NCBI GenBank assembly: GCA_022641835.1
Contig: CP048716.1
Span: 1,860,001-1,924,000 of the forward strand
Reading direction: 5' to 3'
Length of the DNA: 64,000 bases
DNA from: Petasospora fabianii
Lineage: Eukaryota; Ascomycota; Saccharomycetes; Phaffomycetales; Wickerhamomycetaceae
Under the pieces are notes generated by a model that had not been told where the DNA came from, searched no databases, and saw nothing but the letters and a program-made list of their open reading frames with translations. A program made the position numbers and the translations under genes. Shown here one piece after another: positions 35,218-56,442 of the stretch (positions within the stretch are counted from its first letter, which is position 1; each line of letters opens with the position of its first letter).

Positions 35218-38004
35218 TCAACCAGACTCCAAATCTGGACGTCTATTAGCAGAATTAGCCTCCGCGCCAATAGCATCATCAAAGATACCGAACAACTCTG
35301 TCAAGTCCTCAGAACTAAACCATGTTTTTGTATCAACACTAACTGCACCTTGATTAAGCAGCTGCTCTAAACCAGAAGAACCAACCTGTTCAAACAAGCC
35401 ACCATTGGTAGGATCGTTACCGCCACGAAATTGCTGCAGGAACTGTGGTGTAGTATTGGTAGTAGGGATTGCCTCAGAATACGACACTGGGCCGGCCGAT
35501 CCAACATGCTCATTCTCTGAAGGATTCAGGCCGTCCAGTTTCTCACCATATGCACCATTTATTTCACCGAGCTGCGTCGTTATACTCTCACCGAAAATAC
35601 CAGTGATTTGTCTGCGTGTGGCCATCTGATGATTCATGCGAAAAGCCAGACTTTCCTTAACTTTCATCTGTGCAGTCTCGTAGTCCTTTCTTGATGGAGT
35701 AGGAACTGGGCTGCCAAAGTGATACACATTGCGTGGAGTTGCAGGGGGGAAGAGCATGGCTCCTTCATGCAGAGGACGTGATGGGCCACCAACGGGTTGA
35801 AGAAGCGTTGTCAGTGGGGTCGTGCTCATAAAATTCTTCAAGGTGTCTATCTCTGAGGAGGTTAACGTTCCAAGAAATGTTCCAGCCTTAAGGGAGAGTG
35901 GAAGCGCATGGTCAGGGAGACTTGATTGGACTTCTTCAACAGCCTGCGAGTAACTGAAATGTGGATCTTTGACGACGTGTAGGAAGAGTGTTGTACCGAG
36001 AGTCATGCGCTGGGCGTTGTAGTAGCCGGTATTGATGGACTGGAAAAATTGAACTATGGAGTCCATGCTGCAAAGAAGATTAGTTTGAAGCTCCTTGAGA
36101 CTCTTGTATTGTGCTTCTGGAGTGTTTGGAACAAGGAATTGATGAAGACATGTACAATAGAGGTCAGCAATGACTACCATGGAGCGGCTCACGGCACTGA
36201 AGAGAGCAGGACGGATGTAGAAAAGATACTTGGTGCCAAAATACTCTGAACCGTTGTAGTGAATGTTCAGCGCAGAGTTGAAGACTTGAACAGCAAGCCT
36301 GAGTGTGTTCTGATACATCTCCGCATGCATCTTTGGATTGTCATTGTGATGGAAGTGGAGAAGTAGGCGATAGCGGAGTATTAGCTCTAATGCATGAAGC
36401 TCAAACAAGTAAGCAATCTTTTTGACCTTGACATAGGGCACTGGGTTACTTGAGAGGATAAACGACAATGTACCAACCTCCATGGCAACAAATGAGGCAA
36501 CATCCTCTATTACTGAAAACATCTGAGCAACTGTTGGCTTCTTACCTCTCAAGAACACAACCTGGCACACTTTCCGGAAAAGAGCAGTCTTCTTATCCAT
36601 GAAAATGTAATCATTAAGGACAAATGTTTCTGGATCATCCGTTCCTGCAGCATTAGCTGGAAGCTCACAATCATAGGACTCATCATCAAGGAACCTTGGA
36701 ACAAACCCATTATTTGCTGATACTGATGCATCCATCTCAACAATCTTGTGCCACATCTTTCTACAGATCCTGGCTCTGTTCTCTGGCTTACCCAGGTATG
36801 CTGCCATCTCGGAGGGATCACAATGGAGACCGGCTGCCATTGAGTTTGAAATTATAGCGTCCAGAAAGATTCTCGAAGAGGCAAACTCAGAGGAGGTATC
36901 GTCTTCTGGACAGAACTGACGGTAAAAATGAATGTACAACATTAGTAAGACGACTTTTGCTCCGTATGATTTGGCCAAGAAGTTGTAGTGACTAAGGCAA
37001 TGGTTGGCGATACCGGGGAATATAGCGGTACAGACCCCCTTGAGATAGGTCAGGTCCTTGTTTATATCAAAGTCAGCCTGCTCAAGAGACAAGACAGTGA
37101 TGGCCATGATTATGAAAAGGAGACCAAGTGTGGCATAGTCGTACTTCTCAGTAATGTATAGACGTGGAATTGGTTCATTGACGTTGGACCAGCCACCGAT
37201 GAGTCGGCTGAGGGTGTCGGTGAAGAAAACGCCTTCTTCGAGGAGAGGCATGAGAGGGTATATATATTTGAAAAACATCATACAGAGCCTAAGAATCACT
37301 CTGCGGGGTGGAAGATGGTCCAGGATCATGGATTCGAGATCACCATTGTAATTGTCAAGCTCTTTAATACGGCCCTTCAGTGCTGTTTTTTCCCTCTTGA
37401 GTTCGAGGAATCGCATCAGCATGATGTTTAGATGTCCGTCGTTGAGAACGGTGGGTAGTCCATGCTTAAGCGCAGCTTCTCGTGATATCATTGTTTTCTC
37501 CATGAACCGCCACATATGGATCCAAACAGCACGTAGATCCTCAGAGGACTGAATAGATACAAGCGGTGAGGTGGCACCATGATATTCGAGCCTCATCTTC
37601 CTCGTTGCAAGTGCCATGACAAAAGGAACAGTCGATTGGAGCGAGACCAGCTCGTCGGGATCGTACTGATGCTTCTTGAAGTGAATTGAAGGCAATTCTG
37701 ACGAGCTTTGTGACTGTGCCAGATCAGACTCGAGCTTCTTGATTCTAGCCAGGAGTTGATGCAAAGGTGCCCCGCCATTGTGTTCATCCTTGGTGGAGGA
37801 ACCTTCAACGGTTGCCGCGGCCCCCGCCTGCTCGAGAGCCTCTTTCATCCAGGCAGGGTCCTTGTAAGAGCAGAGATGAGCCACGCCTCGACGACCACAT
37901 TGTTCACACGATGGACGTGCCTTGTCACATCGGATTCGTCTCTTTCGGCAGAGAATGCACGAGTTGGGGATACGAGCCCGTCGCACCGACTCCTCATTGG
38001 ACAT
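35218..38004 (-). CDS. HAP1-like zinc-cluster transcription factor, paralogue 1
   Basis: 928 residues. The Zn2Cys6 cluster, Cys16 to Cys45 (CILCRKRRIRCDKARPSC plus EQCGRRGVAHLC), is followed by SYKDPAW, similar to the HLCHY-x-W ending in Hap1. A short coiled coil (about 80-100) should mediate dimerisation. The Hap1-type block (YHGATSPLVSIQSSEDLRAV then WIHMW, about 141-165) and the fungal transcription factor middle-homology region with FCPEDDTSSEF follow. The C-terminus has SSEDLTELFGIFDD (897-910), an acidic/aromatic motif shared with three neighbours. No CPV heme motif is present. It is uninterrupted by introns. DNA target and inducer are unknown. Confidence 0.9.
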   Translation of the reverse strand: MSNEESVRRARIPNSCILCRKRRIRCDKARPSCEQCGRRGVAHLCSYKDPAWMKEALEQAGAAATVEGSSTKDEHNGGAPLHQLLARIKKLESDLAQSQSSSELPSIHFKKHQYDPDELVSLQSTVPFVMALATRKMRLEYHGATSPLVSIQSSEDLRAVWIHMWRFMEKTMISREAALKHGLPTVLNDGHLNIMLMRFLELKREKTALKGRIKELDNYNGDLESMILDHLPPRRVILRLCMMFFKYIYPLMPLLEEGVFFTDTLSRLIGGWSNVNEPIPRLYITEKYDYATLGLLFIIMAITVLSLEQADFDINKDLTYLKGVCTAIFPGIANHCLSHYNFLAKSYGAKVVLLMLYIHFYRQFCPEDDTSSEFASSRIFLDAIISNSMAAGLHCDPSEMAAYLGKPENRARICRKMWHKIVEMDASVSANNGFVPRFLDDESYDCELPANAAGTDDPETFVLNDYIFMDKKTALFRKVCQVVFLRGKKPTVAQMFSVIEDVASFVAMEVGTLSFILSSNPVPYVKVKKIAYLFELHALELILRYRLLLHFHHNDNPKMHAEMYQNTLRLAVQVFNSALNIHYNGSEYFGTKYLFYIRPALFSAVSRSMVVIADLYCTCLHQFLVPNTPEAQYKSLKELQTNLLCSMDSIVQFFQSINTGYYNAQRMTLGTTLFLHVVKDPHFSYSQAVEEVQSSLPDHALPLSLKAGTFLGTLTSSEIDTLKNFMSTTPLTTLLQPVGGPSRPLHEGAMLFPPATPRNVYHFGSPVPTPSRKDYETAQMKVKESLAFRMNHQMATRRQITGIFGESITTQLGEINGAYGEKLDGLNPSENEHVGSAGPVSYSEAIPTTNTTPQFLQQFRGGNDPTNGGLFEQVGSSGLEQLLNQGAVSVDTKTWFSSEDLTELFGIFDDAIGAEANSANRRPDLESG

Positions 38005-38345
38005 TGCGAGGGAAGCTTAGGATTGTAGTCGGTGCCGATGAAAGCAAAAACACACGTATGAAGTGACTGTTGGTGCCTTAGCATGGAGTGGCGAGGCTAT
38101 GGAGAAGAACTACTTTTGGGACACAACTGGAATATGTCACAGGATATGGCATGTCCCAACTGGAAAGTCGACTCGCTGTAGACTATGTGTCGAGTTCGGA
38201 TATAACGCGGCTATCACGCTATTCTCGGGGATGCTAACATACTTTATATATATATATATATATATAAATACATATATCAGATCTGTTCACTTTTATAGTG
38301 TTCTATTGTTGGAATATATACATTCAACTGTTATTTATTTGGCAC
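38005..38345. other. Intergenic region between HAP1-like paralogues 1 and 2
   Basis: This 341 bp stretch is the upstream region of paralogue 1. It contains an AT-rich zone with an 11-unit TA repeat. No gene was recognised. Confidence 0.7.
38245..38266. repeat. TA dinucleotide microsatellite
   Basis: Eleven TA units, flanked by further A/T-rich sequence (AATACATATAT). It is likely to vary in length between strains. Confidence 0.95.
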
Positions 38346-41216
38346 TCAAAGTCCACGGATAGTGTCAAATCCCTGCATTTCCTGTGTTGAGAGCCAGTTG
38401 TACTCGTCGAAAAGCCCAAACACCTCAGTGTACTCTTCACTGGTCAAACTCACTGGAGCCACATCACCTGGGCCACAAGCAGACGTTGGTGTTGTCCCAC
38501 TCATATTGTTGAGCGACAGGGGAGCCTCCGCAGTATTCGCAACATAAGGCGGCGCTCCACCAAAAACAGGAGGTGCGGTTACCTCTGATCTGTTCTCTGG
38601 GCCAAAGATACCATTCATCATCTCGTGGTCCTTTTGCTCAATGTAGCGAGAGCTAATAGATTTCCGAACATCATCGACCGACGGATCATTACCGTCAGTT
38701 TGGAGTGGGTTCAGTACAGTGTTACCCACAGTCTTTCTTCCTGGTACAACACCGAAGTGGTGCATCGTCTCAAGTGGCTTCAATGGAAGAGGAAACACCG
38801 ATGTGAATGAGCGAAGAGGAAGACGAGCACCGACAAGTGGTTGGAGGGCCTCTCTGATATCAGTCTTGGCTGTATTAATCAAAGAATTGATCTCTGGATC
38901 AGGCATGCTCATGATGAAGTTTGTTTTTGGAAGCTCGTCAGTGGCGACACCATGCAAATCATGTGCACGGGTGTGACCCTCTGGGATTGGACGGGAGGAC
39001 ACCTCACGACAAGCCTTAGAATAGTCAAATGATGGATCCTTAAGCATGCGGAAAAAGAAAGAAAACGCAAGACTCATACGCTGAGCATTGTAAAAGCCAT
39101 GATTCGTTGCCGTCAACAGCTCAATGCAACATTGCATGTTGCTCAAGAGCGTACTCATAAGGTCCTTGATACAGCTTGAACGACCATGGTTTGTAATTGG
39201 TGTGACACTGACCGCTTGGATACAGCGAGCAAGTAGAGCAGAGTGTACGACAAACACTCGGGAAGCAGCATGATATACATATGGCCGAATATAAAATGCG
39301 TAGAAGTGGCCGAAGTAGCGATCAGTGTTATGGTAAACATTCAACGCAGAGTTCATCAACTTCACAGCAAAAGCAAGGGCAGACTTATATGACTCGCAGC
39401 ACGTCGTGATGTTATCCTTTTGGTGGAAATAAATGGCAAGTCTGACCTTCAATACCAACTGTAGCACACTCAACTCTAGCAAAAGAGCAACCTTCTTCAC
39501 ACGAACGTATGGAAGTGGATTACTGGCAAGTATGGACCGAAGAGAGCCGATATTAGTTCTGGTAAACGTCTCAATTTCACGAATACATTCCTGCATCTGT
39601 CCCACAGTTGGAGGCGTAGTCCGTAGGAACAGCTTGTATGCGATATCCCTGTAAAACTTGACTTTCTTCTCGGCAAAGGCAAAGTCACTTACCACAAATG
39701 CCTCGAGTGGATCCATACCTGGTTCTGGCTCCGGAAGCTTGACATCATACGATTCATCATCCAGGAAGTGCGGTGGAATACCAAGCCATATGCCATTCGT
39801 AGCATCCATATCCGTAATCTTGTGCCAGATTTTTCTAAGACAAGTGGCATGAGACGGTGACTTTCCCATACTGTGAATTATATCGGCTGGATCACAGCCA
39901 AGTCCCATAGCTGTAGCCTCGGAAATAATACCCCTAAGACCGATACCACCCATTGAGAAGTCTGAATTGGTGTCATCCTCTGGACAGAACTCATAATAGA
40001 ATTTGACAAGAAGCCTGAGCGCAATCAATTTTGGGATGTATGACTTTCTTGTGAAGTTGTAATGACGGAGACACAAAGTGGCCATGTTGATGAACATGGC
40101 GGTTGAAGTGCCCTTCAAATGTTTGAAGTCGTAGTCAGTCTCAAGCTCAGTGGTGGAGATAGTCAAAGAGGCAATAGCCATCACGGCAAAGAGGAGACCC
40201 ATGAGTGCGATATCGTACTTGGTGGAGATCTCAAGCTTAGTTGGCTTCTCATTCATATTCAACCAAGTTCCCAGGATTCTCTGTAAATCATCATTGATAA
40301 ACGGATGCTCGTCAAAGACTGGGATCAAGGGATAAACGTTACGGAAGAACCTTACTGACAGAGCCAAGATAACTCTTCTGATTGGCAAATACTTCAAGAT
40401 GAGGTTCTCCACGGTCTCCGAGGAGTTTTTAAGAATGCAAACTTCTTCCTTGTGGGCAACTTTCTGACGACGCAGTTCAAGGAATTGCACCAAGACAGCG
40501 TTGAGGGCTCCACTGTTAAGGTCATTCCCCGTTGATGGTTGCATCCCACTGTTTCGTGCCATCATAGCCTCTTCCAAGTACGCCCACATGTGCAACCATA
40601 TTACCTTGAGATGTACATCGCGCTTGATGATTTGTATAGGAGACAAGGCACCATGGAACTCAACTCTTGACTTTCTCATCACGTGTGGGATCAGGAAGGG
40701 AAGAGCTTCATGTAAGACGAGGGTCTCATTTGGATCATACAACAGAGATTTCTTGAGTATGTTTGAGGATTTGGGTTGTATGACTTGCCCACTAGACCAC
40801 TCCGTGAGACTTACTGCGGCCTCAACATGCTTCAACCGCGTCATAAGTTCCTCAAGATTACCCTTTACATCTTGCTCCGCTTCAGCTGGCCGCACGGCAG
40901 GTGACAGGACCGAGACAGTCTGGTTACCATGTGGAGGGTGGGATGTATGGGTAGACGGAGTAGTATTCATCCATACCGGGTCATCGTAATGGCAAAGATG
41001 TGATACACCACGTTTCACACACTCTTCACAGGCTGGTCTTCCCTTGTTACATTTGATCTTTCGCCGTCTGCAAACGACACAAGAGTTCGGGACGCGGAGA
41101 CGCTTCTTTGCTGGGCCGGGGCTATCGCCTGACGTTGTGCCCTGGGTCACGGGTGAGACGCCTGGAAGCGAGGAGACCGACGAGGGAGATGGCTTGGTGG
41201 AAAAGGGTTCACTCAT
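38346..41216 (-). CDS. HAP1-like zinc-cluster transcription factor, paralogue 2
   Basis: 956 residues from ATG MSEPFSTKPSP (41214-41216); 16 further open codons upstream lack an ATG. The cluster CVVCRRRKIKCNKGRPAC then EECVKRGVSHLC ends HYDDPVW. A helix around the MTRLKHVEAAV segment may dimerise. The block SPIQIIKRDVHLKVIWLHMW and the motif FCPEDDTNSDF match paralogue 1 in position. Near the C-terminus LPKTNFIM, an LQPL segment and SEEYTEVFGLFDEYNWL (926-942) are shared with paralogue 4, and both end in RGL, making these two the closest pair by eye. No CPV heme motifs and no intron. It is probably a nuclear DNA-binding dimer; its targets are unknown. Confidence 0.9.
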   Translation of the reverse strand: MSEPFSTKPSPSSVSSLPGVSPVTQGTTSGDSPGPAKKRLRVPNSCVVCRRRKIKCNKGRPACEECVKRGVSHLCHYDDPVWMNTTPSTHTSHPPHGNQTVSVLSPAVRPAEAEQDVKGNLEELMTRLKHVEAAVSLTEWSSGQVIQPKSSNILKKSLLYDPNETLVLHEALPFLIPHVMRKSRVEFHGALSPIQIIKRDVHLKVIWLHMWAYLEEAMMARNSGMQPSTGNDLNSGALNAVLVQFLELRRQKVAHKEEVCILKNSSETVENLILKYLPIRRVILALSVRFFRNVYPLIPVFDEHPFINDDLQRILGTWLNMNEKPTKLEISTKYDIALMGLLFAVMAIASLTISTTELETDYDFKHLKGTSTAMFINMATLCLRHYNFTRKSYIPKLIALRLLVKFYYEFCPEDDTNSDFSMGGIGLRGIISEATAMGLGCDPADIIHSMGKSPSHATCLRKIWHKITDMDATNGIWLGIPPHFLDDESYDVKLPEPEPGMDPLEAFVVSDFAFAEKKVKFYRDIAYKLFLRTTPPTVGQMQECIREIETFTRTNIGSLRSILASNPLPYVRVKKVALLLELSVLQLVLKVRLAIYFHQKDNITTCCESYKSALAFAVKLMNSALNVYHNTDRYFGHFYAFYIRPYVYHAASRVFVVHSALLARCIQAVSVTPITNHGRSSCIKDLMSTLLSNMQCCIELLTATNHGFYNAQRMSLAFSFFFRMLKDPSFDYSKACREVSSRPIPEGHTRAHDLHGVATDELPKTNFIMSMPDPEINSLINTAKTDIREALQPLVGARLPLRSFTSVFPLPLKPLETMHHFGVVPGRKTVGNTVLNPLQTDGNDPSVDDVRKSISSRYIEQKDHEMMNGIFGPENRSEVTAPPVFGGAPPYVANTAEAPLSLNNMSGTTPTSACGPGDVAPVSLTSEEYTEVFGLFDEYNWLSTQEMQGFDTIRGL

Positions 41217-41412
41217 GGCTGGCGAAGAATGTTGTCTCTGCCGGCTATACAAAGTGATGCTCACATTGACTCTCTTGTTTTTGTCCAGGCTCGGACTTTC
41301 CGGTAAAATCGCACTTGAATCCCCTTGAGGCAGAAGTGGGGGTCACCCGGCTGTGTTTGGCAATACACTTTAGCTACGCGCAGTTAAGGTTACTCATAAT
41401 GTCATTAAAGTC

Positions 41413-44127
41413 TTAGCTAAGCTCTGTCTCGTAGTGCATGTGCATGTCAGCACCTGCCTGGTTGTCCAGCCAATCGAGATCATCGTTGAATAGGCCAAGA
41501 ATATCATCCGTGGTGAACGTAGCTGGGTCAACAGGGATAGCACCATTACTAACTAAACCCTGTGCTTCGTGAATGCCAGACTTGTCAGCACTACGAGGGA
41601 TGAGGTCCCTGATCCAGTATGGATTGTTACCTTCAAAAAGACTTTGGAGGTCTGGCTGAACCACTGGTGATGCTGGATCAAAAGTTGCAGAGACTGGCGC
41701 AATCTGTGGTGGTGTGTTGCTGAGAGGTGGACTTGGTGCATGGTACTTCTGCTGCGCGTATCCCAGTGAGGGATTGGCGATTGGTATGGTCGAGGCAGTT
41801 GATACTTCTGAAGCTGGTGATTTGATCGATGTAATCACCTCTTGAATATCGGTTTGCATGATCGCTGTTAAGTGCTCAATCTCATGATCGAGAAGACCCA
41901 TCAAAAAGTTATTCTGTGCCTCACTCTCTGAGGAGATGTAGTTGACACCCTGTGGTGCTTGCTTCGACATCTCCGTAGCCTTCTTGAAATTGAATGACGG
42001 ATCTTTCATAATCTCGAGGAAATAGGTCATACCAACAACATGTCTAGCAGAGTTGTAGTAACCCTCATTCACCAACTTTGTAACATGAACACCTCTTTCA
42101 ATCTGAATTAGGACTGTATCATATAGGTCCTGAAGTATTCTTACTGTCTTGAGCCCAGCAGATGTCATCCCTACACTTTGAAATGTTGTGAAGAGGTGCG
42201 ACGCCTTTCCTAGGAGGGACCCGAGCAGGGCCAACGAACGAGACATGACAGGGAATACCAATGATCTGAGGAAAATGGAGCACATGTTAGAGAAATATGT
42301 GTTGATGTTGTAACAGATGTTAAGAACCATATCAATCATTGTGACTGAAACCTTCAAACCGTCTGCGCATGTGGTGTACACCATGCGTGTGTCGTTCTTC
42401 TTTTGGAAATGACCCATCAATCTTGACTGAAGACCCAACAGCAAAGAGTAAACACTGAAGAGATCATTGAGGCCCTTCATCTTCCAGCAAATAGAGTATG
42501 GGGACATTACAATATCCTCAATGGATGGGATTGTCTCCAAGTAGTGCTTCAACTCAGTAATAACATTGAACATATCGCTCACAAGTGGTGGATCACCTTT
42601 AGCAAAACAAATCAAGCAAATCTTCCTAAATAACTTCACCAGTCTGTCTGAGGATATATAGCTCTCGTCAATCATTTTCTCAACTTCACTCTCTGTAGAA
42701 TTTCCCGGGTTTGGCAAATCCGTATTGTAAATATCCTCACTTTGACACAATGGCAACGCTCCAACTGTGGCGGCAGTCATAGCATCCATATGCAAGATAT
42801 GATGCCAAATACGTCTGGCAAGACGCTCATACACAGGGAAGTGGCTACCACTACCCCATGTCAGTGCTGTAGTTGCAGGATCAATATGAAGACCCATTGT
42901 CATGGCAAGCGAGTAGATCGTACCCATGAGGATACGACCTTCACTTTGATCAGAGACATCGTCATCCTCGGGACAAAAATGGTTATAGTATTTGAGCAAG
43001 ACGAGTAGCTGGATGAGACAAAGTGAGTATGGTTTTCTGGTCATGTTGTAGTTGTTATCGATGCATCTCTTGGCGATGGCCTGGAATATTCCTGTGTTGT
43101 AGTTCCTCATTAGTTTGAGATGTGGTACGGATTCGTATTGATCCTGTTGAATGCACATGTTTGTGAGCCCGACGACGACAAGCAGTTCGCACAGAACTAT
43201 GTCCGGGTATGCAAGTGGAGTATTGGATTTTGCTGGAGGAATGATAACTTGAATTTGATCAGGACCGTCCCATGGACCGATGAGGTGAGGCAGTTGGTTC
43301 TCCATGAACATCTTGCGATCAAGGATTGGACAAATGGCATGCATCCGATCGAAGTATATATTGCAGAGCTCCTTGACTGCCCAACGTGGTGGTAAGAGTG
43401 GGGTGACCAGTTCAGCCAGTGATGCCTTGGTGTCCTTGATTGTCCGGCATTCGATCTTCTGTGTGGCCTTCTTTTGCCTCATGAATCTGTACTGCGAAAG
43501 AAGAATGGAGAGATCCTTGGAAACGTGTTGACCTGAGCTTTCTGATGGCTGATTTGAAATAGCAGAGGAACTAGCAATGAATCCCGTGTAGTTGCCCATG
43601 TTCTTCTCGAAACTGCTCCATGTGTACAGCCAGAGTATGCGGAGATGTGGGTCTTGCTTGATGGAATACGCCGGTGAAAGGGCCCCGTAATGCTCGATAC
43701 GACACTTCCGGAGGATGAAGGGCACAATGAAGGGCATGTAATCATAGATCTGGACCTGTTCCGATGGGTTATAAGGACGAGTAAGTGACCTGGATGGCCT
43801 TGTAGAGTCGCCCAGCGTGGTAAAGAGAGAAGTATCGCTTCCCTTGAGAGCCGTCTCAATATTCCGTAGACTGCTCACGATCTTCATGAGCTCCTGCCTG
43901 GAAACATCAGGCACGGCCTCCTGGGAGAGAACTCTCCATGGAAACTCCTCGTAGGTGCATGTGTCCACCGTATTGCGCTTGGTGCACTGGCCACATGCCG
44001 GCTTAGCCTTGTCACATTTGACCTTTCTCTTGCGACAGACGGTACACGAGTTGGGCACACGGGCCCGCTTGCGCATCTCCTCGTCCAGGGATAAGTGGAC
44101 TGCGCCCGTGGAGCTATCGATGCCCAT
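41413..44127 (-). CDS. HAP1-like zinc-cluster transcription factor, paralogue 3
   Basis: 904 residues. The cluster reads CTVCRKRKVKCDKAKPAC then GQCTKRNTVDTC; it is the only member in which the residues before the last Cys (HL in the others) are DT. The block SPAYSIKQDPHLRILWLYTW and HFCPEDDDVSDQSEGRI follow in the same order as its neighbours. The C-terminus has TTDDILGLFNDDLDWL (872-887), a variant of the shared acidic/aromatic motif, preceded by Pro/Ser/Gln-rich linker. No intron and no CPV heme motifs. Its 208 bp upstream gap ends at the PDX3 stop, so its promoter is very short or overlaps PDX3. Confidence 0.9.
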   Translation of the reverse strand: MGIDSSTGAVHLSLDEEMRKRARVPNSCTVCRKRKVKCDKAKPACGQCTKRNTVDTCTYEEFPWRVLSQEAVPDVSRQELMKIVSSLRNIETALKGSDTSLFTTLGDSTRPSRSLTRPYNPSEQVQIYDYMPFIVPFILRKCRIEHYGALSPAYSIKQDPHLRILWLYTWSSFEKNMGNYTGFIASSSAISNQPSESSGQHVSKDLSILLSQYRFMRQKKATQKIECRTIKDTKASLAELVTPLLPPRWAVKELCNIYFDRMHAICPILDRKMFMENQLPHLIGPWDGPDQIQVIIPPAKSNTPLAYPDIVLCELLVVVGLTNMCIQQDQYESVPHLKLMRNYNTGIFQAIAKRCIDNNYNMTRKPYSLCLIQLLVLLKYYNHFCPEDDDVSDQSEGRILMGTIYSLAMTMGLHIDPATTALTWGSGSHFPVYERLARRIWHHILHMDAMTAATVGALPLCQSEDIYNTDLPNPGNSTESEVEKMIDESYISSDRLVKLFRKICLICFAKGDPPLVSDMFNVITELKHYLETIPSIEDIVMSPYSICWKMKGLNDLFSVYSLLLGLQSRLMGHFQKKNDTRMVYTTCADGLKVSVTMIDMVLNICYNINTYFSNMCSIFLRSLVFPVMSRSLALLGSLLGKASHLFTTFQSVGMTSAGLKTVRILQDLYDTVLIQIERGVHVTKLVNEGYYNSARHVVGMTYFLEIMKDPSFNFKKATEMSKQAPQGVNYISSESEAQNNFLMGLLDHEIEHLTAIMQTDIQEVITSIKSPASEVSTASTIPIANPSLGYAQQKYHAPSPPLSNTPPQIAPVSATFDPASPVVQPDLQSLFEGNNPYWIRDLIPRSADKSGIHEAQGLVSNGAIPVDPATFTTDDILGLFNDDLDWLDNQAGADMHMHYETELS

Positions 44128-44335
44128 TTGACACCTGGATTCTCGGTGTGTTGAGATAGAGTGATGTGAGTCGATGTGCTGACAGAATGAAGCTGAATCT
44201 TTTGACTTTTTGGCCTTCGGATTTCGGGGCGTCGGCCGCGGGTGGTCTGTTTAAGTGCCGGATGCTCACAGACACGTTAAAGACGACGTAATAAACTACG
44301 TAAGGATACAAAGCACGTATATATGTTCATTCGGA

Positions 44336-45054
44336 TCATGGGGCAATTCTCACTTTCTGCCACTCGGCGTCCTCGTTCTCACGTCTGAACACCACACGGT
44401 CGTGGAGACGAGAAGCTCCTCCCTGCCAGAACTCAATCTCGAGTGGCACGATTCTCAGTCCACCCCAGTACTCAGGACAAGGAACCTTTTCCTGGCCCTC
44501 AAACTGCTTCTCACGCTGCTTGTAAATGTCCTCCAGCTCCTGGCGGTCCTTGATCACCGAGGACTGGGGACTCGACCATGCTCCAATCTGGGAACCCCTT
44601 GGACGGGTCGAAAAGTATCTCTCGGAGGTCTCCCTGTCAACAAACTCCGTCTTTCCCTCAACACGCACCTGTCTCTGAAGGTTCTTCCAGAACCAGGTCA
44701 GGGCAGCCTGTGGATTTGACTTGATATCGCGGGCTTTCTTGCTCTTGTCCCAGTTGGAGTACACGATGAACCCACGGTGATCGAGCTCCTTCAGGAGCAC
44801 CACACGGGACGACACGCGGCCAGAGGGCAGTTCAGCCGTGGCAAAGTTGACAGATTCTGGAATCTGCTCGACCTTGAAGGCCTCATCGAACCAAGCTTTG
44901 AACTGGACGATTGGGTCCTCGTCTACCTGTGAGGTGTCGAGTGAGCCCTTCTCGTACTGATAAGTTGGTGGGGCGACTGCGCGAGGGTATTAGTACTGCT
45001 TAACAATCATCTCCAAAATGGACACATACAGACTAGGGGTTTCTCGTCTGGCAT
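44336..45054 (-). CDS. PDX3: Pyridoxamine 5'-phosphate oxidase Pdx3, one intron
   Basis: Exon 1 is 45030-45054 (MPDEKPLV plus one base); exon 2 is 44336-44976. The 53 nt intron 44977-45029 has GTATGT, TACTAAT and GCGCAG. The spliced protein is 221 aa (228 in S. cerevisiae) and reads PLVFAPPTYQYEK across the junction, matching PIIFAPETYQYDK. FMN/PLP-binding blocks are intact: PSGRVSSRVVLLKELDHRGF, FFWKNL-type NLQRQVRVEG, TRPRGSQIGAWSS, and the end EYWGGLRIVPLEIEFWQGG. It oxidises PNP and PMP to pyridoxal phosphate in the cytosol. It is the only unrelated gene inside the HAP1-family array. PLP is also the cofactor of Hem1 (heme synthesis), a loose thematic link only. Confidence 0.96.
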
Positions 45055-45277
45055 TTTGAATGGTTTCTTCTTCACAGAGCTGAATGAACGGACAAACGTT
45101 CTGCGGAGCATTGACGATTCCCAGGAAAAGTCTCGTGGTTTTATAGTGATGCTTTGAGTCATGAGCTGCCCCCAATTCCCCAGCCCAAGCTTCCGCGACT
45201 TCCGTTTTGGGTCATCACCGCGCCACTTAGCTGCACTACAAAGGAATTCATTTTAATACTGTCCTTTCCTATATGAA

Positions 45278-48131
45278 TCACAGTCCTCTAAGATCCTTCT
45301 TATCCAGATTCAGCAAGTTGTAGTCCTCGAAGAATCCAAACAGGCTGGCATACTCATCGTCCGACAACGACGTTGGATCATACTGCATCGCACTGTGCAC
45401 TGGCGCCGAAGTTGATCCTCTGGTGTTACTAAAGATCTCATTCATGTTCACAGGCACATCATTTAGTGTAGATCTTGGCAATGGCGACTTTGCTGTCACA
45501 GAGTCCACCGTTGGGTCGTAGAACTGTCCATTACCAGCACCGCTAGGATTCGAAGTTGGCGGTCTTCCACTGCCCGTTGCTGTTAATGGCTGCAATACCT
45601 CATTCAAATTGTGCTCGGTCTTGGCCTTGAGATAAGCCAGCTCAGAATCCATTAATAACATAATGAAGTTACTCTTCGGAATGTCATCAGCGGTTATCAC
45701 ATGTATCTCATGCGACATGTTACCATTGGCTGGCATTTTGTCACGAGCAGTCGATTGAGCAGCCTGCTTAGCAGCCTTGTCAAAGTCGAATAATGGATCA
45801 CTCACCTGGTCAAAGAACATCTTCATAGCCAGTAAGATTTTCTGAGAGTTGTAATAGCCCGTGCTGACAGTGCTCATGAGCTGGATTGAACCGTTCATGT
45901 TGGACAACAGCGAGTAAAAGAGATCGTTGATACAGTTCATTCTTGTCACGTCAGTCGGGGAGATCAACTTACGACACTGCGACAACTTGGCAAGAACACC
46001 ACCGATCAAAAGTATAGCCTTCTCAATGGCGAGGTAAGCAACTGGTCTCAGCATCACTTTGTGACCACGGTCAAAATAGAGGTCCATGTTGTAGTACATG
46101 TTCAAAGAGGAGTTCAAGATCTTCATCGTCAATGTCAACGATTCATCAAAGTACTCAAACACCTTCTTCGTGTTACCAGTGGAGAAAAAGTGGTTCAAAA
46201 GACGTGACTTCAGAGCCAGAAGCAATGAGTTCATCTCATAGAGATAAGACACCTTCTTAGCCTTGACATATGACTTCACGTTGGAATCACCCAAAATACT
46301 CTTCAAACTTCCAAAGTTAACAGACATAAAGTTTTCAATCTCCCTCACCAAGTGAACCATTTGCAACACAGTTGGTTTTCTGCGTATGTTGAAACACGTA
46401 TTGGCAATCTTTCTGTACAATGCCGTCTTCTTATCTACCAGCTTGAAGTCCTCAACCACGTATGAATCAACATCATCCATGAATTCCTCCGCTTCTGGTA
46501 ACTTGGTATCGTAGATGGCTTCATTTGTACAGTTAGGAGCAACACCAAGCGAGACAGCCTGAGTGGCATCCAACTCCAAGATCTTATGCCACATTTTTCT
46601 CCACAACTGACCATACGATTGAGTCTTTGGAGATTTGATTAAGCTCACCAGCTCATTTGGATCCGTCTGTAGTCCCAATGATAAAGCCACAGAGTAAATC
46701 GTACCCATCATGATTCTACCTCCGGAACCATCACTGACATCATCATCCTCTGGACAGTAGCGGAAATACATCTTCAAGTACAGCAGCAATTGCAGCACTC
46801 TTAGACTGTATGACTTTCTCAAGAAGTTATACTGATCAAGACACTTACGAGCAATCATCACATGGCCAGCATTGATGTCCACGTTTTTGATACACTCAAA
46901 TTCTTGTTTGTTGTAATCCTCTGGCTCGAGTGTAATTTGTCCGAACCTCATCATCAGGAACAACAAGCCAATGGTGGCATAATCATACTTCGAGCTGATG
47001 ACAACCTTAGTTGGACGAGCTTCGATTTCATTCCAGGTATCAAAAATCGATTCAAGCTCACCGAAGAAGGAATTTTCATTGACAAACGGCAAAATTGGAT
47101 ATACAACTTTGAAAAATCTGAAACAGAGTGTCATGATACACTTACGACTTGGTAATGAACGAATGATAATGTCATTCAGACTCACATCGGAGTTCAAGAG
47201 ATCCTCAGTGCTCTTCTTCACAATCTGTTTCTGCTTTTTCAACTCAAGGAATTCAAGGAAACTCTGATGATCTAGAGACACTTGCTTGGCAGGACTTTCC
47301 GGGTATCCATCATTTCGAGCACCACGCATCTTACTCTGTAGGCTGATGTCAAAATTCTTCCAAAGATGTGCCCAGACAATCTTGAGGTGTGGATCTTTCT
47401 TGATGATGGTCTTTGGGTCAAGACCTCCGTGATATTCTAGTCTAGACTTCTTGATAACGAATGGGATGTAGCCAAAGATTTCAATAGTTTCATCTGGGTT
47501 GAAATCGTATTGTGGAGCAGCAGCACGCTGTGGGCTTCCAAGGAAGTCAGCCCCTCCGGAGAAGCCGTATGGCCCAGCAGCAGCATGAGAGTGGTTAGTT
47601 GATTGTGGTGGTTCTTGGTAGGTGCTTCCAGATCTGGCAAGATCGGAGACAGCAATGGAGGCTTCAATGTGTTTGACACGAGCAGCGAGTTCATCAAAGA
47701 CTTGTTTAGATGACGCTTGGTCCGATGGGGTGGAGTTCACAGCACCGGAGATGGATGGCTGTCTGGTCGGGTCGACAGATGGAGGGCTCGTAGGCTTGGG
47801 CCCACGCCAGAGATCCTTGGAGTTCACCCAGAGAGGTTCTTCAAAATGACAAAGATGAGGGACATTGCTTTTTGCACAACTGCCACAAGTTGGACGAATC
47901 TTGTCACACTTTGGTTATCGGTGTTAGTGTCTCAGGGAAGGTAAAAATGAGAGCGGAAAGAGGGAGAAAACATACCTTAATTTTACGCTTTCGGCAGACG
48001 GAGCACGAGGTTGGAACCCTCATACGTCTGCGGTGCATCTTGTCATTATCAGGGGGAGAGCTGTCGCTGCTGTCCTTGTTGGTGCTATCCATTGTGGCTG
48101 CGACTTGGGTGGGACGATTCTCCTCGGCCAT
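45278..48131 (-). CDS. HAP1-like zinc-cluster transcription factor, paralogue 4, one intron
   Basis: Exon 1 is 47976-48131 (52 codons, MAEENRPTQVAATMDST onward); exon 2 is 45278-47908. The 67 nt intron 47909-47975 has GTATGT, CACTAAC and an unusual AAAG acceptor. The product is 928 aa. Splicing completes the cluster CSVCRKRKIK | CDKIRPTCGSC and NVPHLCHF, with the junction exactly before the third Cys; without it no zinc cluster exists. The block DPKTIIKKDPHLKIVWAHLW, the motif RYCPEDDDVSDGSGGRI and the C-terminal SDDEYASLFGFFEDYNLL (901-918) are shared with paralogues 1 to 3. It ends LRGL like paralogue 2. No CPV motifs. Confidence 0.9.
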
Positions 48132-48532
48132 AGCGGTGTAGCGGAGTAGGGGCTCGGACTTGAGTAAAAGAAGCGTTCACAGCGAGTTCCAGGGTGACTT
48201 TAGGTCTATACAGGAGCTCAGAGTCGAAGTCGAACTTCTGGTGGCAACTGGCAATGGGTGAATAATTCTGGCAAGAGTTTATAGCAGATGGGAAGGAGAA
48301 TACTAGCCGACTCGTCTTTAGGCAAACGGATTTTCCTCCGAGTTGGCCGGACGAAATCAAACTTTCGCGGAAAATTAAGCCGTTGCTATGGTGATATATC
48401 GGGGCTTACGGATTTTAAACGCAGGGTATCACCGATGCCACCCGGTCAATCACCGGGCCACTGGGTAGTCCTCTACAGAGGGTTTATCCTATATTTCTTC
48501 GTCAAATTAGCACCTGTGTAAGGACAAGAAGA
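48132..48532. other. Intergenic region between paralogue 4 and HAP1
   Basis: This 401 bp is the upstream region of paralogue 4 and the downstream region of HAP1. It holds CGG/CCG-containing short repeats (for example CCCGGTCAATCACCGGG near 48442-48458) that could bind zinc-cluster factors. No gene was recognised. Confidence 0.5.
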
Positions 48533-51500
48533 TCAAGAGAACCAGTTGCCGTTAATCATCGCGTTGAAGTCCATTGGAGGAATGCCCATCTCGCTTGGGT
48601 CAAGGTTCATGTTGGCCATCTCTGAAATGAAGCCACCGGCACCTGCTGGATTACCGGCATTCAAATTCACACCAAACATGTCTCCGAGAGATCTGTCTGC
48701 GACGTCGTTCAAGTCAGCGAGAGCTTCAGGTGGAGCCATGGCTGGAAGATCCGAACCATCAATCTCAGAAAGCCCCGTTGCGCTTCCAGCGTTCATGAAT
48801 GGGAATGGAGATGTAGCCGATGCAGTTCTATGGCCATACTCTGGCGTCGGAACACTAAATATGCCGAAACCAGGAGATGATGCAGTTGGCGGGAGGTCCT
48901 GTACCATCTGCTGTGTGGGTGGTTGAAGAGGTGGTTCCTGCTGGTGGGCCTGGAGGCGCTGCTGCATGTGTGGTGGCGCCTGAGACATCTGCTCGATATG
49001 GTGCTTGTGATGCTTGTGTGGACACTGCTCAGTGGCAAGCAGTGTGCCTGCTGCACGATTGTTAGCTGTCGATCTTGTAGCACTCTCCTCAGCACGCATG
49101 AATACTGGACACTTTCTCAACTCCTCCTCATCGGCGGAAAGAACTAATGGAACCGAGTTCAAAAGAGTGGACACCTCACCAGTATTGTTTTCAACACGCT
49201 TAACATTCTCCGTCTTCACAATAGATTTGACAGAGTTGGTGGGTTTCTTTAGCAAAGTAATAAAGAAGTACACAGCCTTCGCCATTCTCCAGCTATAGGG
49301 GTATTTCTTACCAAGTTTCTCAGATAACACCTCAAACTTCACCATATGGTCCAACAAAATCGTAGCCAGCATCTCACCAGAATTCACATCCACATCGAAA
49401 ATAGAAGAAGCCGAGTCATCCTTAATCTCAATGTTGTCAAGGTCATGGTTGGTGTTATCAATTTCGTGCACACCATTACCATCAATATTCTTCTGTGTAT
49501 TTGATGGAGAGATAGAGCCATTTCCAGTATTTTTCTCTGTTGTATTTTGAACCACAGTAGCCCTCATGTATGGCCCACATCTGGATCTCAAAATTAACGA
49601 AACCATAAACTGCATCGAACGGTGACCAACAAGAAGTAATAGAGGAGAAAGGATCAGATCAGCACCAGGACCGAAGTATTCTAAGCCGCAATCGAAGAAA
49701 AGTGTGCAGTTCCTGTATCCTTCAAGTGCACAGTTGAGAGCCTTCTGAGCGTAGTTCTTGGCAATAACGGCAATCTCAGCATCCTGTGCGCCTCTTGGTT
49801 CGAAGTGCACGTACAAGATGTAGTTCAACAAGTAGATCAGCATGTTCACCATAACGTGTGCTCTGAATTGGATGGCTCTCGTACCTGACGAAAACAATGG
49901 TTCACTCTTGGCTCTGTGAACTAGGATCTTTCCAAGCTGAGGGAGGGCGAATTCATCCTGAGTAACACCGAATCCACTGATACTGTGTTGAAGCTCTTTG
50001 ATGAGAGCATCCACCTGTGTTCTCTTTGCTGGAGAATTGACATTGAGCAACACTTTCATCGTTTTTGAGATCAGGGTGTCAAGCTTGGCCTGAGTATGGA
50101 TATTCTTGATGACACTTAACTCTCTCATATCATCCTTGAATTCCTCAAGATCAAGTCCATCCTTCTGTGCTCCTGGAACCATGGTATCTGAGAACTCATC
50201 ATGTCCCTGCAGGCCCCTCGGACAGCCAAGATTAACACTCTGACTGACATCAAGCGACACCAAGGCAAACCAGATCTTTCTCCATAGATGTCTCTGTCTT
50301 TCATTACCGAAATTTTCAAAGTTCTTTGGATCACGGTGCAAGCCGATACTGATGGCCATCTGGATGATCATACCAAGGAAGATCTGGGAGTCACCACCAT
50401 CGGCTCCATCACCATCTTCTGGAGAGTACATGAAGTAGAATCTCATATAGAGAGCACATTGAACAATTTTCAAACTGGACTTTCTCATCAGCTTCAAGTT
50501 AGAGAAGCAATGCTTGACACACTCCACAAGTTCCAATGGGATCTCGTTCTCTGGTTTTTGCAAAATAGCGAGGGCTTCCTGATCCTCTGGATAAGTTTTG
50601 GTGTTGATAGATTTACCCAGGATTTTGTTCGAGTTGTTGATTGGCAAAGTGTTCCAAACAAGTCTAAGAATGATACAGACAGTACCAACGAGGGCAAAGT
50701 CAATACCCGATCTGATGTTCATGGTGATATTCTGATCCTTGTCATCTGCACTTCCCATGATCCTCTTGACATCTTCCTTGAACGTCTCCTCGTCAACGTA
50801 TGGCAAGTAGACGTATAACACTTCAAAGAATCTCTCAATGAACAACCAAAGTACTTTTTTCGTAGGCAAGTACTTTTTCATCATGTCGACTGGATTAGCC
50901 TTGAAATCATCTGGAGACACTTTTCTTCCAGCGCTCTTGGTGCTGTCACTCGAGTTACTGCGTACCGTTTTCTTCTTCTTGTGAGGATTATCAAGTGGTA
51001 CACCGAAGTTCATACCACTTTCATCAGCTTGGAATCCACCCAAAAATCTATTATCACCAATCATAAGTGGACAGACACGATCATCCTCTTCAGTGGCTGG
51101 TGTCTCCTTGTTCTCTGAGGAAGATCTGTCATCATCGCCATCCTCAGTGTCATCCTCACGAGCTCTCTTAGAAGATGGTATCGAAACCGGCGCTTCATCG
51201 TTCTCCTCGAGGTCATGGGAAACTGGGCACTTGCCCATACCTTGAGCCTTACCCGAGACTGGGCATGTTTGATGTGGTTGTACTTTGGACTGTACCGGTG
51301 ATCTTTGTTTCTGCGTCGTTGTATTCTTGAAGATTTCTGTGTGAGCAACGGGGCACTTACCTATTGAGGTGCCTTGACTGGTATCACCTGATTGACGGGG
51401 TTGGGATACAGTAGTACCGGCTGAGGGAATGATTGTGTTCTGTGATGGCTTTGGTCTGGCATGTTTTCTGAATTTAAACTCTTCAACCTGTTTTCGCATC

Positions 51501-52075
51501 TTAAAGATGTGGGCCCAGAGGACTCGTAAATATGGATCACCTTTCATGATGGCGAGCCAGGACGTAGCACCTAAATGTACTGTAGTGGTTGACTTAATGT
51601 GGAGCATATCAAATTTCTTACCAAGGTTTAAGCTGTCGTTTTCATTCTCTTCTGAGCTTGAGTCTCCTGAGAGCTCTTGCGGTGATAATGGAACATCATG
51701 GTGATGGCTGTGCTGTAGTTGCTGTTCGAGCTGTGCAATCTTCTCTTTGAGTCTCTCAACTTCGTTGTCGGCCGTCTCACCATTGGTGAGTTCTTCGTTG
51801 GAAAGAGGCTGTGCCCACGGTGGATCGATGTAGTGACAGAGATGGGCAACTCCAGTCCTCTCACATGCAGCACAAACGGGTCTTCTCTTGTCACATTTAA
51901 CCTTCCTTCTTCTGCAAATGGTACATGAAATGGGTACTCTGTTCCGCTTTTTGTTGTTTTTAGTATCTTTGTCCTTGTCCTTTTTAGATGACTTGGTTGT
52001 CTTAATCTCCTTTTGTTCGTGAACTTCGAATTCGAAGTCGCTCATTTCAGAAGGACGCTCCTTCTTTGGTGCCAT
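48533..52075 (-). CDS. HAP1: Heme-responsive zinc-cluster activator Hap1
   Basis: 1180 residues. The cluster (Cys51 to Cys80) sits in RNRVPISCTICRRRKVKC and ends GVAHLCHYIDPPW, nearly as in S. cerevisiae Hap1. A coiled coil follows (about 103-122). The block FDMLHIKSTTTVHLGATSWL then IMKGDPYLRVLWAHIF (about 156-191) matches Hap1 FDLLHIKSNGTIHLGATHWL. Heme motifs with the CP core: GKCPVAH (Cys241), QTCPVSG (271), GKCPVSH (283) and RVCPLMI (335). A further RKCPVFM at Cys989 lies where Hap1 has its C-terminal HRM7 (KCPVY). Hap1 activates respiration and sterol genes when heme, and so oxygen, is available. The DNA-contact arm upstream is very Lys-rich. No intron. The C-terminus is Gln/Pro/Met-rich and differs from the neighbours. 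Confidence 0.93.
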   Translation of the reverse strand: MAPKKERPSEMSDFEFEVHEQKEIKTTKSSKKDKDKDTKNNKKRNRVPISCTICRRRKVKCDKRRPVCAACERTGVAHLCHYIDPPWAQPLSNEELTNGETADNEVERLKEKIAQLEQQLQHSHHHDVPLSPQELSGDSSSEENENDSLNLGKKFDMLHIKSTTTVHLGATSWLAIMKGDPYLRVLWAHIFKMRKQVEEFKFRKHARPKPSQNTIIPSAGTTVSQPRQSGDTSQGTSIGKCPVAHTEIFKNTTTQKQRSPVQSKVQPHQTCPVSGKAQGMGKCPVSHDLEENDEAPVSIPSSKRAREDDTEDGDDDRSSSENKETPATEEDDRVCPLMIGDNRFLGGFQADESGMNFGVPLDNPHKKKKTVRSNSSDSTKSAGRKVSPDDFKANPVDMMKKYLPTKKVLWLFIERFFEVLYVYLPYVDEETFKEDVKRIMGSADDKDQNITMNIRSGIDFALVGTVCIILRLVWNTLPINNSNKILGKSINTKTYPEDQEALAILQKPENEIPLELVECVKHCFSNLKLMRKSSLKIVQCALYMRFYFMYSPEDGDGADGGDSQIFLGMIIQMAISIGLHRDPKNFENFGNERQRHLWRKIWFALVSLDVSQSVNLGCPRGLQGHDEFSDTMVPGAQKDGLDLEEFKDDMRELSVIKNIHTQAKLDTLISKTMKVLLNVNSPAKRTQVDALIKELQHSISGFGVTQDEFALPQLGKILVHRAKSEPLFSSGTRAIQFRAHVMVNMLIYLLNYILYVHFEPRGAQDAEIAVIAKNYAQKALNCALEGYRNCTLFFDCGLEYFGPGADLILSPLLLLVGHRSMQFMVSLILRSRCGPYMRATVVQNTTEKNTGNGSISPSNTQKNIDGNGVHEIDNTNHDLDNIEIKDDSASSIFDVDVNSGEMLATILLDHMVKFEVLSEKLGKKYPYSWRMAKAVYFFITLLKKPTNSVKSIVKTENVKRVENNTGEVSTLLNSVPLVLSADEEELRKCPVFMRAEESATRSTANNRAAGTLLATEQCPHKHHKHHIEQMSQAPPHMQQRLQAHQQEPPLQPPTQQMVQDLPPTASSPGFGIFSVPTPEYGHRTASATSPFPFMNAGSATGLSEIDGSDLPAMAPPEALADLNDVADRSLGDMFGVNLNAGNPAGAGGFISEMANMNLDPSEMGIPPMDFNAMINGNWFS

Positions 52076-53714
52076 GGTTAGAGGTTATCCCGTACCAAGT
52101 GGGGGTAGGAACTATAGAATCGAGATGAGTTCGATGGCGTAGGTGTATAACTTCGCAACAGACAGAAGAAAGAGCAGCAAGTAATGTATTATTAATACCG
52201 CTGGTGCGATGGGTGTAGGCTGTAGTGAGCTCGTGTTAAGTGAATGTCACCCGAATCTGAGAGTTAACAATGGTGGTGTAGGTCGATGAGCTTGTAAGGC
52301 GCCAGCACGTTGTAGTTCAGGTTGAGGTTCTTGTAATGAACGCTTGTGATGAAGCCTTCTATGGCTATTGGTTCTGGTGTGTGTCCTATCACTAGGCCCT
52401 ATGGGTGTGAGAAGGTATGTGTTGGTGTCTGGATATTACAAATGAATAGACGAATTCATGCGCTGTTAGATGTTTACGGAGACGCAGATGTGAAGCTGTA
52501 CATCAGCGGATCGAGTTCCGAGGGCAGCTTGGCACCTTTTTTTTTAACTCCCTTACCTTAAGTTGGCGCGGAGAAGGCGCGCATAGCTTCAACTTTAAAC
52601 AGTGTTTGAGGTGGAAGAACCCCCGCTCTTTTCTCGGGAATTGCCATTACTAAAGAATCTGCCGTGCGGTGTGATGACGTGAGCTAAAGTAAAAAGCTTT
52701 GTATATACTTCTTTGGTGGCAGTGGGACAAGTGTGGCATGAAAGACACCCGATATCACCGGAGCAATAATTTGGGCTAATGAGAGTACACACACCACGCG
52801 TAAAAATTTAGTGTCTGTCGCCAACTACTGTGCAGGCGGCGGGCAAACTGTCATTTGCAAGAGTATGAGTTTCTTTTCCTTGGCGTTCATTTTGGCATTA
52901 CTCCAGTGATATTTCCAGTCTAGTGTACATAGCTTTAAGCTTCTTTTTACATAACTTGTTTTGCTCCAGTGAGATCTGTCGAATAGGCTATAACACTAAT
53001 TTATTTAGCCAACTCCGCCCTCCTCCGACAAACGCAGGCAGATCTCCACGATTTTGATGATTTCCGAGGGTGCTCAATGGCGGAAAAATCCGTCACCGAA
53101 ATCTCCATCGTTGCCATCAAAAAGGAGGTTTACCCTTCGGGTGGAACTCCCCATCGGGTATAACACTCTCTTTAGGCGCCCACATAGATCCATATAATAT
53201 TATCATTTTGTATTGTCCTCTTGGTTTTGGCAATAGACGCCTAATCATTTCAGTTAGCACCCTTTAGACCAAACGTGAACACTCTTCCGACGGGGTTTTT
53301 GTTTTCAATGAGACTAGTTGCTGCGCATTAAAACATGCCATGTAGTCAATATTGGCCGTTTTATTGTTATTTTGAAGCCGTATGGTTAAACCTCCATCCC
53401 GATAGTCCCGTACTAGTGTAGACTACCCACTACTACACTGCATATTCGCTAACACTACATACACCATTCATACAATTCATCATTATTGTGATAGTGGACA
53501 AACCAAGCCATTACATAATGGCTCACTCACGCCACTTTTGACTGAGCCATCCTCCATAGACTATATACAAGCTTACCCTGCTGGAGCATCAAACAAGACA
53601 AATCAAGGAAAGAAAAAAAAAGGTCCAATATAAAAACAAGAACACCGGAAACCAGTTAACACACACATCACTTCGTTATCGTTTCTCCACAAACACATTG
53701 ACTAACCAAACTCT
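52076..53714. other. 1.6 kb upstream region of HAP1
   Basis: This is the largest gap inside the array. It contains a T9 run near 52538-52546, an A-rich run near 53607-53620 and many short inverted GCGC and CGG words (for example 52564-52581). I found no convincing open frame, no tRNA and no transposon ends. Long 5' regulatory regions are plausible for an oxygen-responsive regulator. Confidence 0.5.

Positions 53715-56442: not shown

What the first reader, a model, noticed from the sequence alone, without database searches (positions are those of the whole stretch)
35218..56442. Six-gene tandem array of Hap1-family zinc-cluster regulators
Six minus-strand genes share the Hap1-type cluster, the block ending in D-x-x-L-x-x-(L/I/V)-W just after the linker, and a PED-centred middle-homology motif. 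They occupy 21 kb and only PDX3 interrupts them. S. cerevisiae has a single HAP1. This looks like a lineage-specific expansion by tandem duplication that may have split oxygen/heme control, or turned copies to new inputs.
Basis: partly seen in the sequence, partly recalled or inferred. Interest (0 to 1): 0.8.

Follow-up and report, generated by a model that had tools for sequence, protein, structure and literature searches.

The report
HAP1 and five heme-blind neighbour regulators
In the yeast Cyberlindnera fabianii the oxygen/heme regulator gene HAP1 sits in a row with five related regulator genes that lack its heme-sensing motifs; the row mixes three old lineages, and only four of the genes come from one later tandem expansion.

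Summary
Real: six open, head-to-tail Zn2Cys6 regulator genes fill 35218-56442 of a Cyberlindnera fabianii window; PDX3 is the only other gene recognised between them. Two (g4, g6) have an intron at the same codon boundary inside the zinc cluster. The reading "tandem expansion of HAP1" is only partly right. g5 alone is HAP1: it groups with S. cerevisiae and K. lactis Hap1 and has five CP[VIL] heme motifs. g1-g4 form a separate clade with a Wickerhamomyces protein; g1-g3 arose by tandem duplication beside a g4-like gene. g6 is a third lineage with its own orthologues. In the trees the nearest genomic relatives of g5 and g6 are dispersed genes (C6:399k, C3:1572k). An AU test rejects the six as a clade; it does not reject the array lineages plus those two. 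Equal contig lengths suggest that HAP1 lay near g6- and g4-type genes before Cyberlindnera and Wickerhamomyces split. The other five lack a heme-motif cluster and probably read non-heme signals; g1-g4 share a C-terminal acidic/aromatic motif resembling an activation domain. Two exact Hap1 sites upstream of g5 suggest autoregulation, but five expected Hap1 targets had none. An old mixed regulator array at the HAP1 locus, not a new kind of system.

The parts
35218..38004 (-). g1: Hap1-like Zn2Cys6 regulator, 928 aa, no intron; member of the g1-g4 clade
   Evidence: ORF; PF00172 and PF04082; 37% to g2; trees
38346..41216 (-). g2: Hap1-like Zn2Cys6 regulator, 956 aa, no intron; sister of g1
41413..44127 (-). 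g3: Hap1-like Zn2Cys6 regulator, 904 aa, no intron; longest branch of the g1-g4 clade
44336..45111 (-). PDX3-like pyridoxamine-phosphate oxidase, two exons (45111-45030, 44976-44336); not part of the family, interrupts it
   Evidence: PF01243 and PF10590 on exon 2; exon limits read by eye
45278..48131 (-). g4: Hap1-like Zn2Cys6 regulator, 928 aa; exons 48131-47976 and 47908-45278, phase-0 intron before the CD of the zinc cluster
   Evidence: public model CYFA0S01e14730g1_1 (P0110) joins the cluster the same way, with a later start
48533..52075 (-). g5: HAP1 orthologue, 1180 aa, CP[VIL] motifs with the C at residues 241, 271, 283, 335, 989
52749..52760 (-). exact match to Hap1 site CGGNNNTANCGG, about 0.67 kb upstream of the g5 start
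53399..53410 (-). second exact match to CGGNNNTANCGG, about 1.3 kb upstream of g5 and 0.3 kb downstream of g6
48125..48136 (+). third exact match to CGGNNNTANCGG, overlapping the proposed g4 start codon
53715..56442 (-). g6: Hap1-like Zn2Cys6 regulator, 878 aa; exons 56442-56350 and 56258-53715, intron at the same cluster position as g4

Best explanation
The array is the HAP1 locus of C. fabianii, holding three old Hap1-family lineages head to tail: g6, HAP1 (g5) and the g4 lineage. The g4 lineage then expanded by tandem duplication to g3, g2 and g1; the common ancestor of g1-g3 lost the cluster intron. Two dispersed genes (C6:399k near HAP1, C3:1572k near g6) are probably old copies that left the locus (inferred; the direction of movement is not shown). 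Shown: gene anatomy, the g1-g4, g5 and g6 clades, shared intron sites, a heme-motif cluster in g5 only. Inferred: each protein dimerises through the coiled coil after the cluster, binds paired CGG triplets, and activates transcription through its C terminus. g5 switches with heme through its CP motifs and probably regulates its own promoter. g1-g4 and g6, without such motifs, follow other inputs, most likely sensed by the large helical middle-homology domain.
For: Trees (middle-homology region only): g1-g4+P0111+P0112 100 in each; g1-g3 98-100; g6 with orthologues 99-100, and with C3:1572k 100; HAP1 clade 98/98 with C6:399k as sister 92/93, 91/87 and 100/98. AU: six with orthologues rejected, array plus the two dispersed genes not rejected. 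Heme motifs: 22 of 23 HAP1-clade proteins have two or more CP[VIL], 0 of 28 other Hap1-like proteins do; 4 of 4 in a further long-branched group (P0104, P0105, P0107, P0109) do. Equal contig lengths for HAP1 and g6-type hits (13,357; 55,569; 2,451,740; 2,514,465) and for HAP1 and the W. ciferrii g4-type hit (32,781). Intron at one codon boundary in g4, g6, C2:1156k and C2:816k. C-terminal acidic/aromatic motif in 6 of 6 of the g1-g4 clade, degenerate in g3 (the pattern was written after seeing the ends). Model of g4 exon 2 (mean pLDDT 72): helix after the cluster, helical domain; the only Foldseek match with E under 0.001 is 6fe8_B of the CBF3 core complex. Two exact Hap1 sites between g6 and g5; 0 of 5000 Markov sequences of that stretch had two.
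Against: Deep branch order among the lineages is unresolved (bootstraps 35-67), and in the 55-row quick tree the Pichiaceae HAP1 proteins and C6:399k were not firmly joined to the other HAP1 proteins. One ancestor at this locus is allowed, not shown; g4 clade + HAP1 without C6:399k is weakly rejected (p 0.024), with it not rejected (p 0.46). Synteny rests on equal contig lengths, not coordinates; 7 of 11 g6-type and 2 of 3 g4-type relatives shared no contig length with a HAP1 hit. The five expected Hap1 target regions (named from their Pfam families: heme oxygenase, cytochrome c, cytochrome c1, catalase, FMN dehydrogenase) had no exact site, so the consensus may not be decisive in this yeast. 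1 of 23 HAP1-clade proteins (P0096) has no CP[VIL]. No expression or binding data.
Confidence: 0.78

Rival explanations
1. One reading: all six are daughters of one HAP1 by lineage-specific tandem duplication.
For: Adjacency, same strand, shared domains, all pairs similar; clustering beyond chance.
Against: Six with orthologues as one clade rejected, p 0.0002; g6 and g4 have their own orthologues in other species; dispersed genes are closer to g5 and g6 than the array neighbours are, and five dispersed genes gave g5 a better match than any array neighbour.
Confidence: 0.07
2. Gathering: three lineages born elsewhere were brought together by rearrangement, perhaps because co-location helps co-regulation.
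For: Deep order unresolved, lineages not shown to be sisters; dispersed members exist.
Against: Same orientation and adjacency of rare family members, and the random-placement test, favour tandem birth; g1-g4 are a clade of neighbours.
Confidence: 0.15
3. Some copies (g3 above all) are decaying genes with no regulatory role.
For: g3 has the longest end branch in its clade, 1.41.
Against: All six frames are open over 878-1180 aa with all six cluster cysteines kept; g1-g4 keep the C-terminal motif, degenerate in g3.
Confidence: 0.06

Closest known systems
Saccharomyces cerevisiae Hap1 and orthologues (K. lactis Hap1p, C. jadinii FST3)
   Same: g5: same cluster, linker, DPYLRVLW-type block and heme-motif layout (group after the coiled coil plus one near the C terminus, as in P0040 and P0014); same clade
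   Different: g1-g4 and g6 lack the heme-motif cluster and lie in other clades; I recall no such neighbours at S. cerevisiae HAP1 (not checked here)
Candida glabrata HAP1A/HAP1B ohnologues (PMC11580460, passages seen)
   Same: Hap1 paralogues with divided roles in one yeast
   Different: Those came from whole-genome duplication and both keep heme motifs (five and six, per the paper); here the neighbours are tandem and without the motif cluster
HRM-less Hap1 relatives such as C. albicans Mrr1 (PMC9491583, passages seen)
   Same: That paper separates Hap1-like proteins with and without K/RCPV/I motifs; g1-g4 and g6 fall on the 'without' side
   Different: Mrr1 itself was not placed in my trees; the g1-g4 clade has a C-terminal motif of its own
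Yeast tandem gene arrays (PMC2822764, passages seen)
   Same: Head-to-tail paralogues with one spacer gene
   Different: The paper reports tandem paralogues to be less divergent than dispersed ones; these share about 22-37% identity and no direct repeat of 24 bases or more was found

Membership tests
HAP1 (orthologue) | Falls in the HAP1 clade with S. cerevisiae and K. lactis Hap1 | tested here: met
   g5 only; g1-g4 and g6 not met
HAP1 (orthologue) | Several CP[VI]-type heme-responsive motifs | tested here: met
   g5 five CP[VIL] (mean 0.25, largest 5, in 5000 shuffles of its residues); g3 one; g1, g2, g4, g6 none: not met for those five
HAP1 (orthologue) | Heme-switched activation or repression | not testable with these tools
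   needs reporter or expression data
HAP1 (orthologue) | Binds CGGNNNTANCGG | tested here: inconclusive
   2 exact sites upstream of g5, 1 at the g4 start; 0 in five expected target regions; binding itself not testable
Fungal Zn2Cys6 regulator with middle-homology region | Six-cysteine cluster plus PF04082 | tested here: met
   6 of 6, g4 and g6 after splicing
Tandem expansion of g1-g4 | The four form a clade with their orthologues, to the exclusion of the dispersed genes modelled | tested here: met
   100/100
Tandem expansion of all six from HAP1 | The six form a clade to the exclusion of dispersed genes | tested here: not met
   p-AU 0.0002; not rejected once C6:399k and C3:1572k are allowed in, p 0.14

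The most novel reading that the evidence does not exclude
The HAP1 locus is the birthplace of much of the yeast Hap1-like regulator family: tandem copies arose beside HAP1, some moved away, and in Phaffomycetales the remaining heme-blind neighbours work as a linked module with HAP1, sharing CGG-type sites and wired to it through Hap1 sites in the g5 and g4 promoters.
Probability: 0.2. Interest if true: 0.6.

Novelty: new variant of a known kind. Interest (0 to 1): 0.42.

Why it matters
It shows where heme-blind relatives of HAP1 may come from and gives one locus in which a heme-sensing regulator and its heme-blind neighbours can be compared directly. If the neighbours share target sites with HAP1, the locus becomes a natural test of how oxygen/heme control is divided among paralogues.

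Tried and rejected
Six-daughters-of-HAP1 was tested and rejected, then re-tested with the two dispersed genes allowed in, because the first test was unfair to an escape scenario. Hap1 sites were looked for in five expected target regions as a control and not found; a second, weaker FMN-dehydrogenase hit was not looked at. Three further exact sites turned up in 125,925 bases of other loci, those five regions included, one about 0.12 kb upstream of the Hap1-like gene at C3:1022k. Rfam gave nothing at its gathering scores. Recent duplication was looked for as DNA repeats: none of 24 bases or more. The fold search of the g4 model gave one match with E under 0.001, a chain of the CBF3 core complex, and no lead on a ligand. 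A model of g5 was asked for and had not finished at the last look, so it is not used. The public protein search with g4 scored only the 7993 candidates sharing most words, so missing relatives mean little. No public protein search was made with g1, g2 or g3 (g2 was used in the window's own genome).

Rows left out: of 125 proteins found, 39 went into the first tree (55 rows), 19 into the second (31 rows) and 16 into the third (27 rows). Of 96 zinc-cluster loci counted in the genome, six are the array; 20 stretches holding 21 of the others were fetched. Ten proteins from nine of these stretches, chosen for similarity to the six beyond the zinc cluster, entered the first tree, six the second, five the third. 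L028, L029, L031 and L033-L040 were left out; of these, L035 and L037 had weak matches outside the cluster (E 5e-6 to 2e-5). The other 69 loci were not fetched. The very long C2:816k branch (3.29) was dropped after the first tree. One search compared contig lengths against 14 typed of the 109 HAP1 hits; by eye no other length matched.

Full report
What is there. The window comes from Cyberlindnera fabianii (g4 matches CYFA0S01e14730g1_1 at a rounded 100%) and is G000:C2:1860001-1924000. NCBI now lists the species as Petasospora fabianii, order Phaffomycetales, the order that also holds W. ciferrii. Six minus-strand genes span 35218-56442. I call them g1 to g6 from low to high coordinate. g4 and g6 look truncated as ORFs because an intron of 67 and 91 bases splits the zinc cluster between the K and the CD; splicing restores it. 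A public model of g4 joins the same residues (P0110). PDX3 is the only other gene recognised inside.

Chance. All pairs align by BLASTP: g1, g2 and g4 at 32-37% identity, g3 at 27-28% to each of them over most of their length; pairs with g5 and g6 are weaker and, for g5, cover separate parts. Random placement of 96 zinc-cluster genes put six within 21.3 kb in 1 of 20,000 draws (96 = 92 family hits plus four with split clusters, a lower bound).

Three lineages, not one. A search of the genome with g5 found five dispersed genes with a better match than any array neighbour. A quick tree of 55 proteins, a careful tree of 31 and a middle-homology-only tree of 27 agree on the three groups. g1-g4 form a clade with P0111 and with P0112 of W. 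ciferrii, in which g1-g3 are sister to g4+P0111. g6 groups with proteins of C. jadinii and unnamed relatives, and then with the dispersed gene at C3:1572k. g5 lies with HAP1 of C. jadinii, Wickerhamomyces, K. lactis and S. cerevisiae; the Ogataea, Kuraishia and Pachysolen HAP1 proteins join them (98/98; 91/87), that joint is unresolved. The dispersed gene at C6:399k is nearest to HAP1 (92/93; 100/98); its place is unresolved. AU tests reject the six with their orthologues as a clade (p 0.0002), g6+HAP1 (p 0.001), g4 clade+HAP1 (p 0.024) and g4 clade+g6 (p 0.04). With C6:399k and C3:1572k included, the array is not rejected as a clade (p 0.14), g6+C3:1572k+HAP1+C6:399k is not rejected (p 0.12), and g4 clade+HAP1+C6:399k is not rejected (p 0.46); with C3:1572k alone added to the six it is (p 0.006). 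These groups were partly chosen after seeing the tree, and the long branches call for caution.

Intron. The same phase-0 site is split in g4, g6, C2:1156k and C2:816k, 4 of the 16 genes of this genome modelled for the trees. An Ogataea angusta relative (P0122) carries 11 extra residues at that place that read like an unspliced intron (inference). The intron is therefore probably old in the family, and one loss fits the g1-g3 clade; the fewest changes on the tree are three for the 11 genes scored.

Age of the neighbourhood. Contig lengths reported for hits coincide: HAP1 and g6-type on contigs of 13,357 and 55,569 bases and on a 2.45-Mb C. jadinii chromosome, HAP1 and g4-type on a 32,781-base W. 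ciferrii contig. Pachysolen HAP1 and a g6-like protein share a 2.5-Mb contig, which is weak. In all, 4 of 11 g6-type and 1 of 3 g4-type relatives share a length with a HAP1 hit. These are equal lengths, not coordinates; a missing match says little, since even C. fabianii's own g5 and g6 entries (P0001, P0114) list different contigs. No direct repeat of 24 bases or more remains in the array, which fits old duplications.

How it works. g5 has five CP[VIL] motifs, four between residues 241 and 335 and one at 989, the layout of Hap1. Two or more occur in 22 of 23 HAP1-clade proteins, in 0 of 28 other Hap1-like proteins, and in 4 of 4 of a further long-branched group that may be the C. albicans Zcf20 type (that label is my guess). 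The paper on C. albicans Hap1 uses the same feature to separate Hap1 from its relatives (PMC9491583, passages seen). The six proteins of the g1-g4 clade share a C-terminal acidic/aromatic motif (degenerate in g3), likely an activation domain (function inferred). The g4 model (exon 2 only) has a helix after the cluster (residues 64-93) and a large helical domain, whose only Foldseek match with E under 0.001 was 6fe8_B of the CBF3 core complex. By sequence, a profile of 16 relatives finds the solved DNA-binding parts of Hap1 first, then Rsc3, Cep3, Rsc30, Gal4 and Put3. Three exact Hap1 consensus sites occur in the window, all in the array: two upstream of g5 and one at the g4 start; the shuffle mean for the window was 0.36 and 1 of 100 shuffles reached three. 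C. albicans HAP1 also has one at -878 (PMC9491583). Against this, none was found in five expected Hap1 target regions (that these are Hap1 targets is recalled, apart from heme oxygenase, which is in PMC9491583).

Print. A search for Cyberlindnera with HAP1 and transcription factor found 0 papers. In the listings (20 of 30 shown; 15 of 71; 15 of 719; 12 of 52) no title or abstract start named such an array. The library holds few papers of subscription journals.

Noticed in passing
C6:421500-430500 (L026) and C1:1410500-1415500 (L027): Three paralogues of another zinc-cluster group, two of them neighbours; the C6:427k and C1:1413k copies are very close by branch length.
   Followed up: partly
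window 25700-27613 (-): Protein with DDE_1 and Tc5-type DNA-binding domains; resembles S. cerevisiae Pdc2 (recalled), a transposase-derived regulator.
   Followed up: no
window 56863-57897 (+): CrcB-like protein (PF02537), likely fluoride exporter, divergent neighbour of g6.
   Followed up: no
C3:1020500-1026500 (L024): Exact Hap1-type site about 0.12 kb upstream of a dispersed Hap1-like gene.
   Followed up: no
window 61442-62293 (-): HPP transmembrane protein (PF04982), role unknown here.
   Followed up: no
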